This document shows, one piece after another, positions 56,201 through 59,200 of a stretch of 64,000 bases of DNA. Under the pieces are notes generated by a model. The model did not search any database and was not told the DNA's origin. It saw only the letters and a list, made by a program, of their open reading frames with translations. Within the stretch, counting starts at the first letter, position 1, and each line of letters begins with the position of its first letter. The stretch is from Pomphorhynchus laevis (taxonomy: Eukaryota > Acanthocephala > Palaeacanthocephala > Echinorhynchida > Pomphorhynchidae). The position numbers were made by a program, and so were the translations under genes. The stretch is taken from assembly GCA_012934845.2 (NCBI GenBank), contig WNNJ02001190.1, positions 1-64,000 of the forward strand, in the 5' to 3' direction.

Positions 56201-59200
56201 TTCGCTTATCATCAAAAACATCATTGATTATAAGTAAATAGGCTTATTGTAATATTGAATATTTTAGTTATTGTAAGTAAATAGGGTTTTCTGAATAGAT
56301 CAAATTGGTCAAGAATTTACTGTAATTTTATTAGATTTTATTAGTAGGAATTATTCTCGAGGGATTTCAACCTTTGTTCTACATTATACTTAGTTGGCAT
56401 TACTTGATATTAATAAAGTTGACAATAATGATACTGCAATTGTCGTCTCTTTAAGAAAGTCAAAGTTAGGGAAATAGAAATTGCAGTTTATAAATAGGAA
56501 ATATATTTTTGTATCTTTATATTTTAACCAAAATTTTTATATTTTGGTTAAAGAACAAAGAATAAATTTCAAATATAGATGTTGTATGCCCCAAACCTAA
56601 CATTTTAATGTTGCAAGTCCGTCACCTAAAATTTTAATGCTAGGTGACGGACTGATACCCATTGTGTTTTTTAAGAATAAATATAATTTGTAATCCATTG
56701 AGTATACAAAATATAAGATTTTTATTATATTAATTACTGGATAATTAAATAATAATTAATAATTATTATTAAATTACTGGATTTTTTAAATAAATATTTA
56801 AATAAATATTTAATGTAAATTAATGTAAAACATGCAAGCCAAACGCGAAAGAATGACGAATGCCGTTTCGTCATCACAAGAAATGTTTTACAAGAAATTC
56901 ACGCGGAATGGTCTCACTCTCCTTAAATAAAAGTTAGCCGATATTAAAGAGACCTGCGCTGGCATTTGCCAGTCCTTTTGCTAATGATCCTTTTTGGTGA
57001 AGTTGTTGTACTGATTTAGTTCTCGATGATGTTACTAGAAATTTTCTAGTACATCATTCACATTGATTCATTCATTGATTGCCGTCTGCCAGTCCTCCTC
57101 TGCATCCAGTAGTGGGAGGGATCTGGCACTGATGAGTCATTGTGATGACGAAACGGCATTTGTACTTTCGCGTCTGGCTTACATGTTTTACAAGAAATTC
57201 ACGCGGAATGGCCTCACTCTCCTTAAGTAAATTAATGTATATTTTTGCTTGTACTGATAATTTAATGTCTTAGCTAGTTCCGGATCACGGGTGGTCGTTT
57301 GATGTTATTTTAAAAAACATGCCTTTTCCTTTCGTACTTTGCTAATTTTATTTTTGTTTTGCAATTTAGATTTCAATCAGCTTCTAGTTTTTGTCACCAA
57401 GTACGCCTTGACGGATTGAGTAGACAGGTTCTGTGTGAGATTTTCAAAGATTCGGATTACTGTTTGGATTTATTTGGTAAATACTTCGAATACTTATTTA
57501 AAATTATGTTTCGCAGACACTGTAATTTATACTAAACAAATGTCATATTTGTGCATTCGAGAATTGGAATGGCTATTCAAATATAGGATCTGATACAATT
57601 TCAAACCTTAATATAATCCTTAATATATAATTTGATATATTCAATGTAAATGTTGAAATTGTTATACTACATATGGTTATGCGTCATATAAAACCATATG
57701 CGTCATATAACCATATGGTTATACATTATAACCATAATTAGAACATTATGTACCATCTGTTAAAAATTATAATTTTGACCATAAATTGTAAGCAGATTTG
57801 ATGCCGATTGAGCTTTCAAGATTGCTTAATTGATTCCGATTGAGCTTATTCGTTAACAGATCTTTGCTATCGACTTCCTAAAAAACGTCTTTGCATGATT
57901 TAGATTTTATGAAATCGTTTTGGGCTATTCACGAACGAGATTTTTATAGAACGAGATATCATGTGAACGAGATAAATTTTACAACTTTTAATGTTTTATT
58001 CATTTCTAAATTTAATCAAATTCCAAACGTTTACAAATAAATATTTGTCATCTTTAATAGCAAATATAGATTTATATTAAGAATATATTCCGAATTTTAA
58101 TTTATAAATTAAATTTTGATCAAATTATTTATTTAATGAAATATAATTCGTTATTTAATTTTATAAAATATAGTTTTATTTTTATAAATAAAATAATATT
58201 TTTATATACTTTTATTTTTTTGATATTTCTAGAATATTTATAGAATGGAACCAAAGATACGACAGAAGAATATTAAATTTAGGCTATAATTTGAAAATAT
58301 TATGCACCATAGATATTCGCTGTTTCGGTTTGGTGGCCTTTTTCGGTTAAAGAGTGGCCTTTCTGAATAGTAGCTTTCCTGGGCTATTTAGAAATCTTTC
58401 TTTAAAAGTTGCGTTGTTGCGAAAAGAAAATTTGGATCTTTTAACATTGGAATTCTATTATTAATGAAAAATGAAACTCCTTATTTAATAAATTTATATA
58501 TAAAAATAAAATATCTAATAATATTACGGATGTTACTAATAAAAAATTACCTAAATTACATAAAATTTTTTAATTAAAACCGAAATTTAATAATTCTTCT
58601 GATATTTATAAGATACCGTTTAATAAAAAAGTTTCTTATAAAAAAGAAAAGGTTAAACTGGACAGGAATTATAAGAACACATCTCACAACATAAATATAA
58701 CATTAAACATGAAGTGTTCGTTAACACAACATGCACTAAACTTAGAACATAAAGTTAATTTTGATAAAGCCTCAATTCTATTACCTTTCGCGTATTATAC
58801 AGGATGCTTATTTTATAAAAAAAATGATGTGATGTTCAATAATAATGCAGATTTTATTTTAAAAATATTCTATTTAATTTAATTTTTATAAATTTTTATA
58901 GTTAATTGAACTTAAATTATATTTGTTTGATTTGTTTCAGTTTTTTATATTGTTGCTTACGTTTTTCTGTGGCTTAAATTCTGTTTTACTTTATGAAAAA
59001 ATGACGAATGAGGCTATGATGTGATAATTTCTTGTACAGCTTTTTTCTTTATAAGCTCCTCGTCTCTCGTTTACCCAGCATAGTTCGCGCCGATTATATT
59101 CTTCGGGGGCGAGCGGTGAAAGACCCCGGGTGGTTCTGAGATCCACCCGGGGTCTTTGGCCTGAGATCGCCCTGGATCTCGGGCCATAAGAAATAGGAGA

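What the first reader, a model, noticed from the sequence alone, without database searches (positions are those of the whole stretch)
57081..57157. Intact hammerhead ribozyme in sense orientation inside an intron of the RRM-Tudor gene
All invariant hammerhead nucleotides (GUC, CUGAUGA, GAAA) and three stems (6, 5 and 6 bp) are present in 77 nt, on the strand that the host gene transcribes, 212 nt before exon 5. Seen directly: motif, stems and gene orientation. Known: hammerheads occur in introns and in retrozyme-type elements of animals. Inferred: it may cut the pre-mRNA or excise element RNA during transcription of a gene that itself looks germline/small-RNA related.
Basis: partly seen in the sequence, partly recalled or inferred. 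Interest (0 to 1): 0.88.

Follow-up and report, generated by a model that had tools for sequence, protein, structure and literature searches.

The report
Jumping element with self-cutting RNA
The ribozyme in the intron is one of many hundreds of copies of a 300-letter jumping element whose RNA appears to cut itself, and the ends of its genomic copies carry both the mark of that cut and the insertion signature of Penelope-type retrotransposons, so it is most likely a mobile-element passenger rather than part of the host gene.

Summary
The hammerhead at 57080-57158 is real, intact and in sense orientation in an intron, but it is neither a lone intronic ribozyme nor type I. Helix III is the open helix, so it is type III, with a long helix I; it scores below Rfam's cutoff. 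It lies in a 399-bp insertion (56828-57226, 13-bp target duplication) of a tandem ~304-bp repeat; an exact 28-nt piece of the ribozyme occurs 852 times in the genome. Across 42 mapped insertions, 10 of 76 chain 5' ends fall exactly on the predicted cut (P about 1e-13), a genomic trace of self-cleavage. 3' ends cluster at two sites about 35 nt apart, and of 25 head-to-head insertions the 17 classifiable at both ends all use one of each. One Penelope-like insertion in the same genome shows the same layout; two-site initiation is known in vitro for a lizard Penelope-like element. Best reading: a retrozyme-like non-autonomous element with a type III hammerhead, mobilised by Penelope-like machinery (helper inferred, not found by sequence). 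In most units folded as circles the core is predicted blocked. A host-gene role is unsupported. Species unidentified; no RNA examined.

The parts
56815..56827 (.). left target-site duplication GTAAATTAATGTA (13 bp)
   Evidence: insertion boundaries set by hand
56828..56882 (-). inverted arm of the insertion; unit positions ~259-304 plus ~7-10 nt, its 3' end at initiation site A
56883..57226 (+). forward arm: one full unit (56883-57182) plus 44 nt of the next, ending at initiation site B
57227..57239 (.). right target-site duplication GTAAATTAATGTA
57080..57158 (+). type III hammerhead: stem III 57080-57085/57153-57158 (open end), cut 57086|57087, stem I 57087-57092/57123-57128 with extension 57093-57120, CUGAUGA 57129-57135, stem II 57136-57140/57145-57149
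57065..57071 (+). GATTCAT, counterpart of the segment predicted to pair with the catalytic core in circular units (off state)
   Evidence: folding only, on the consensus and related units; position read
57167..57207 (+). stem-loop UUCGCGU/ACGCGGA whose loop holds initiation site A (about 57190-57198)
56910..56954 (+). stem-loop GGUCUC/GAGACC whose loop holds initiation site B (about 56921-56936; in the second, partial unit 57226 is the insertion end); the stem is GGUAUC/GAUACC in a sister subfamily
17624..17832 (-). second F1 copy, 0.69 unit with an intact hammerhead (17697-17781), 3' end at site B; no TSD found by the test used
55584..55962 (.). fold-back copy of a diverged subfamily (F3): hammerheads at 55635-55719 (-) and 55827-55911 (+), both with core or stem changes
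54330..54908 (+). host gene: reading frame with Tudor domain, donor read by eye near 54812
57370..57476 (+). host gene: next exon downstream of the insertion, splice sites read by eye

Best explanation
A non-autonomous retrozyme-like element with a type III hammerhead, moved by Penelope-like (PLE) machinery, has inserted in the intron. Proposed cycle: (1) tandem units are transcribed (inferred); (2) the hammerhead cuts the multimers at GUC^U, setting 5' ends (trace seen in genomic copies); (3) after cutting, the core is sequestered by the upstream GA(U/C)UC(A/G)U, which would spare monomers or circles (predicted); (4) a PLE protein binds two adjacent stem-loops, cuts both strands of the target about 10-13 bp apart and starts reverse transcription at site B on one strand and site A on the other (ends and TSDs seen; enzyme inferred); (5) run-off at a cut 5' end, or stalling in the folded ribozyme, ends each arm, and the two arms are joined head to head (structure seen; joining inferred). 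The intronic copy is a by-product with no demonstrated host role.
For: >=366 matches in the own genome, many in tandem arrays. 118 full units, consensus 304 nt, GC 41.8%, mean identity to consensus 96.3%. 10 of 76 chain 5' ends at exactly unit position 206, the first base after the cut, from 7 of 40 sources. 3' ends: 24 of 76 at site A (2-16), 34 of 76 at site B (39-54), 18 other. Of 42 insertions 25 are head to head: 17 A+B, 0 A+A, 0 B+B, 8 with at least one unclassified end. Exact TSD of >=10 nt in 13 of 40 insertions against 0.26% of mismatched flank pairs. Compensatory changes across 18 units of four subfamilies: 25 cells against 9.1 in shuffles, 0 of 500 reaching it. A PLE insertion in the same genome (L070) is head to head with two different 3' ends about 43 nt apart and a 12-bp TSD. 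PLE two-site initiation and cutting of both strands in vitro: PMC11167929 (parts 1-2 of 4 read).
Against: No PLE in this genome was found to share the retrozyme tail; blastn gave only chance-level matches in 20 GIY-YIG loci (L009-L028) and 4 longer stretches, one of them bacterial. Only one PLE insertion was resolved for comparison. No RNA data, so neither transcripts nor circles are shown. Among 43 ribozyme copies, most of them F1, there is no covariation and no measure exceeds its shuffles; in the cross-subfamily set two of five measures do not exceed shuffles, and that tool warns that related sequences can exceed shuffles without structure. 20 of 118 units fail a lenient core test. The F3 fold-back at 55584-55962 looks A/A by eye, against the A+B rule seen in F1. 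27 of 40 insertions showed no exact TSD of >=10 nt. Within-array units are not consistently more alike than between arrays, so rolling-circle copying is not shown. The 39 loci were taken from the best-scoring matches, not at random.
Confidence: 0.82

Rival explanations
1. A domesticated intronic ribozyme that regulates the Tudor host gene by cutting its pre-mRNA.
For: Intact core, sense strand, 212 nt before an exon.
Against: Insertion with a clean TSD, one of many hundreds of copies; its ribozyme is identical to the family's commonest form over consensus 198-278; core predicted to be sequestered in related whole units.
Confidence: 0.05
2. The units are pseudo-LTR fragments of an autonomous PLE rather than an independent non-autonomous element.
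For: Same two-site insertion signature as PLEs; PLEs carry hammerheads in their terminal repeats (PMC7761336, passages).
Against: In the 39 loci the mapped copies consist of unit sequence alone, from part of a unit up to about 27 unit lengths (flanks were not scanned for ORFs); the PLE family inspected has a different tail and only a minimal hammerhead-like motif; published PLE hammerheads are minimal type I (PMC7761336, passages).
Confidence: 0.1
3. Ordinary satellite DNA amplified by unequal crossing-over or extrachromosomal circles, with the ribozyme as a fossil.
For: Tandem arrays up to about 27 unit lengths (L029), some with mixed unit lengths.
Against: Short 1-2 unit insertions with exact TSDs, two recurrent 3' ends, and 5' ends at the cut site point to an RNA intermediate.
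Confidence: 0.07
4. Retrozyme moved by a LINE rather than a PLE.
For: LINE-type reverse-transcriptase-like frames are present in the window (read by eye, no family search).
Against: No long poly(A) at the ends listed and no single fixed 3' end; two internal 3' ends and A+B head-to-head arms match PLE behaviour (PMC11167929) and the PLE insertion L070.
Confidence: 0.06

Closest known systems
Animal non-LTR retrozymes (Cervera & de la Pena 2020, PMC7229834; abstract, passages and sections 13 and 17 read)
   Same: ~300-bp tandem units, GC below 45%, hammerhead in each unit, no recognised ORF, TSDs longer than 4 bp, PLE suspected as helper
   Different: Those have type I hammerheads, mostly free to fold in the circle; this has a type III one predicted to be blocked
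Plant LTR retrozymes (PMC4918200, listing only; as described in PMC7229834)
   Same: type III hammerhead; ribozyme predicted blocked by complementary sequence in the circle
   Different: plants: ~700 bp, LTRs, 4-bp TSD, PBS/PPT, Gypsy helper; here 304-bp multimers, TSDs of 10-13 bp where exact, PLE-like ends
Extended type III hammerheads of termite and dipteran genomes and HDV-like RNAs (PMC7936874, abstract, passages and section 10)
   Same: type III with long, interrupted helix I
   Different: reported as isolated motifs (termites) or without described context; the pseudoknot GCCR/YGGC between helix I internal loop and helix II loop was not seen here by eye
Penelope-like elements with minimal type I hammerheads (PMC11167929 parts 1-2; PMC7761336 passages)
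   Same: two adjacent internal RT start sites 30-40 nt apart, both strands cut, tandem copies
   Different: encode RT and GIY-YIG endonuclease; this element encodes nothing recognised
pDo500 satellite of cave crickets (PMC2837043, passages)
   Same: hammerhead in tandem satellite units of an insect
   Different: stem III is closed within the motif, single or double forms; no insertion signature described in the passages seen

Membership tests
Hammerhead ribozyme, type III | invariant core and three helices with helix III open | tested here: met
Hammerhead ribozyme, type III | Rfam RF00008 gathering score | tested here: not met
   20.5 of 48.5 bits; none at gathering
Hammerhead ribozyme, type III | self-cleavage | tested here: inconclusive
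   no assay; indirect trace: 10 of 76 5' ends at the cut
Animal non-LTR retrozyme | tandem units of 150-450 bp with a hammerhead, GC <50% | tested here: met
Animal non-LTR retrozyme | type I hammerhead | tested here: not met
   helix III is open
Animal non-LTR retrozyme | TSD longer than 4 bp | tested here: met
   13 of 40 with exact >=10 nt; the rest without one by this test or shorter
Animal non-LTR retrozyme | circular RNA in tissues | not testable with these tools
   no RNA data
Animal non-LTR retrozyme | animal host | tested here: inconclusive
   intron-containing Tudor gene; marker search did not complete
Plant LTR retrozyme | type III hammerhead | tested here: met
Plant LTR retrozyme | LTR/PBS/PPT layout with 4-bp TSD | tested here: not met
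   multimers of 304 bp, TSDs of 10-13 bp where exact; PBS/PPT not searched
Penelope-like element | RT plus GIY-YIG ORF | tested here: not met
   304-nt unit; longest stop-to-stop frame overlapping 56828-57226 is 65 aa
Penelope-like element | two adjacent internal 3' ends ('tail') | tested here: met

The most novel reading that the evidence does not exclude
A lineage of type III retrozymes outside plants is copied by a Penelope-like protein pair that uses two neighbouring loops of the parasite RNA, one per DNA strand. This gives bidirectional target-primed reverse transcription with an obligatory A+B pairing. [quoted passage not shown]
Probability: 0.45. Interest if true: 0.78.

Novelty: new variant of a known kind. 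Interest (0 to 1): 0.6.

Why it matters
Which enzyme moves animal retrozymes has been a conjecture (PMC7229834, section 17, calls PLEs a strong candidate); the paired A/B ends give sequence evidence for it and a testable template. The 5' ends at the cut site suggest that a genomic hammerhead cuts RNA that is then reverse transcribed, something the lizard PLE study did not see for its own minimal hammerhead (PMC11167929: no reads at the presumed cut site, and ribozyme mutants still inserted in vitro). It also speaks against the suggestion that repeat propagation may need type I hammerheads (PMC3088659, passage read).

Tried and rejected
Type I assignment: rejected by topology. Lone intronic ribozyme: rejected by copy number and TSD. 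Coding role of the tail: the ATG..TAA mini-frame of F1 (read off the consensus) is not kept in F2 when read by eye. Covariation in 43 copies, most F1: tried, none; only the cross-subfamily set shows it, and there the number of pairs with two-sided change (7 against 5.9, 177 of 500 shuffles reach it) and of further pair types (29 against 31.4, 486 of 500) do not exceed shuffles. Off state: the ddG control is exceeded, but the simpler count of core bases paired elsewhere is reached by 16, 29, 16, 8 and 1 of 100 shuffles. Local folds around sites A and B: window piece z 0.42, F4 piece z -2.44, PLE pieces z 0.82 and -0.27, so mostly not unusually stable. Rolling circle against linear multimer: inconclusive. 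PLE with the same tail: not found. Exact ribozyme piece in viral contigs: 0. PDB search with part of the Tudor frame: 0. Telomere repeats TTAGG and TTAGGG: 0 and 0, no help on the host's identity. Literature: the listings, and the passages read from them, showed no described animal retrozyme with a type III hammerhead; PMC7761336 mentions insect elements with type III hammerheads, citing an earlier paper and unpublished work; the library lacks bioRxiv and most subscription papers.

Full report
What is there. The hammerhead is genuine. Stem III (57080-57085 with 57153-57158) is the open end, stem I (57087-57092 with 57123-57128) carries a long extension, and stem II is 57136-57140 with 57145-57149. 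The energy model returns this fold. Rfam does not pass it (none over the window; 20.5 of 48.5 bits), because its type III model aligns stems I and III to the wrong place. The suggested type I is therefore wrong.

It is a mobile repeat. Searching the own genome (249 Mb, 3242 contigs) with 401 bases around it gave at least 366 matches, many in tandem arrays with about 304-bp spacing. An exact 28-nt piece of the ribozyme occurs 852 times (445 forward, 407 reverse; reversed control 0), and a partly overlapping sister pattern 461 times (control 0). I mapped copies in 39 fetched loci plus the window. These loci come from the best-scoring matches, not from a random sample. 118 full units give a 304-nt consensus, GC 41.8%, mean identity 96.3%. 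98 of 118 pass a lenient test for the core motifs.

Insertion ends. Over 76 chains of at least 40 nt (shorter ones were dropped, among them most of the micro-repeats in L033), 10 begin exactly at unit position 206, the first base after the predicted cut. They come from L039 (four chains), L043, L044, L047, L051, L065 and L066. The binomial P against a uniform 1/304 is 1.2e-13 per chain, or 8e-9 counted by source (7 of 40). 49 of 76 5' ends lie in the ribozyme interval 199-285, consistent with stalling in the folded ribozyme. 3' ends fall in two clusters: site A (2-16) 24, site B (39-54) 34, other 18; the ranges were set after seeing the list. By insertion (42: 39 loci and 3 in the window), 17 have one orientation (12 B, 5 A) and 25 are head to head. 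Of those 25, 17 are A+B, none A+A, none B+B, and 8 have at least one unclassified end. L046 and L064 share ends and similar flanks and may be one duplicated insertion. Exact TSDs of at least 10 nt occur in 13 of 40 insertions tested, against 0.26% of mismatched flank pairs. L041 and the F3 copy were left out of that test, and the boundaries of the window insertion were set by hand. L065 has an 11-nt duplication that the test's 4-nt tolerance missed (seen). The window insertion is 56828-57226 with GTAAATTAATGTA on both sides.

Helper. PF01541 (GIY-YIG) has at least 75 matches in the genome (150 of 795 candidates scored). Several of the 20 loci opened show PLE-like frames by eye, while L072 is a bacterial contig. 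In L070 a PLE copy is head to head, with one arm ending at GTAATAACT and the other about 43 nt further at GTATTTATTA, flanked by TTATATAATCGA. Frangieh et al. 2024 (PMC11167929, parts 1-2 of 4 read) showed in vitro that a lizard PLE cuts and extends both strands and starts at two adjacent internal sites; the interval corresponds to the 30-40 bp 'tail' of genomic copies. They saw no difference in start site between the strands, so the strict A+B pairing seen here goes beyond, or differs from, their result. The retrozyme tail itself was not found in the PLE sequences I fetched, so the helper is inferred from signature, not from sequence identity.

Structure. In 43 ribozymes, most of them F1, there is no covariation. 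In 18 whole units of four subfamilies the structure pairs 92.6% of cells (slid controls 34-54%), with 25 two-sided changes against 9.1 in shuffles (0 of 500) and covariation score 0.122 against 0.095 (0 of 500). The number of pairs with two-sided change (7 against 5.9) and of further pair types (29 against 31.4) do not exceed shuffles. Related sequences can exceed these shuffles without structure, as the tool warns. In the ribozyme itself one pair of stem I changes on both sides (A-U to G-C in two F3 rows). RNAalifold adds a stem whose loop holds site A. Site B lies in the loop of GGUCUC/GAGACC.

Off state. Folded as a circle, the core CUGAUGAGUC pairs mainly with GA(U/C)UC(A/G)U upstream of the ribozyme in 13 of 15 F1, F2 and F4 units (not L081 nor L083:67-386), and with other or mixed partners in the 3 F3 units. 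The cost of forming the hammerhead instead is 2.0 to 16.6 kcal/mol over the 18 units (one equals the consensus). For five tested units this cost is reached by 4, 0, 0, 0 and 1 of 100 shuffled backgrounds; the count of core bases paired elsewhere is reached by 16, 29, 16, 8 and 1 of 100, so that part is weak. Tertiary energy is not counted. PMC7229834 (section 17) says most metazoan retrozyme circles leave the ribozyme free, whereas plant retrozymes and viroids block it.

Host gene. Tudor is supported; exons lie on both sides on + (splice sites by eye). RRM was not confirmed in the five frames tested. Nothing ties the ribozyme to the gene's function. The species is unknown; a COX1 family search did not complete.

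Verdict. A retrozyme-like element whose combination of a type III, probably self-blocked hammerhead with PLE-type ends I did not find described in the papers searched. It is not filed as a member of the animal type I retrozymes, because that defining feature is not met; it works like one.

Noticed in passing
window 55436-55545 and 55956-56072, around 55584-55962: The F3 fold-back copy (156-nt arms, 92% complementary) is flanked by diverged direct repeats of about 110 bp (by eye); either it sits in a tandem repeat or this is a very long duplication. Both its ends look like site A, unlike the A+B rule of F1.
   Followed up: partly
L033:2494-2735 (own-genome contig C1636): A 23-bp tandem array made of a piece of the ribozyme's stem I extension sits beside the 5' end of an insertion.
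   Followed up: no
L039:535-1880: Four arms in alternating orientation, each starting at the hammerhead cut and joined through a few A/T letters.
   Followed up: no
L062:1349-1452: One arm of a head-to-head insertion looks like the F2 form and the other F1, suggesting two different RNA templates in one insertion (by eye).
   Followed up: no
L072 (contig C1660): The best GIY-YIG match lies on a 16-kb contig with long bacterial-looking frames (UvrC-like and others, by eye), so the assembly holds a bacterial associate or contaminant.
   Followed up: no
window 40000-48000: Strong GC skew (0.24-0.35) coincides with long minus-strand reverse-transcriptase-like frames of a LINE-type element (by eye).
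   Followed up: no
L070:4650-5161: The PLE tail carries a minimal hammerhead-like motif (CTGATGA..CGAAA in one arm, CAAAA in the other).
   Followed up: partly
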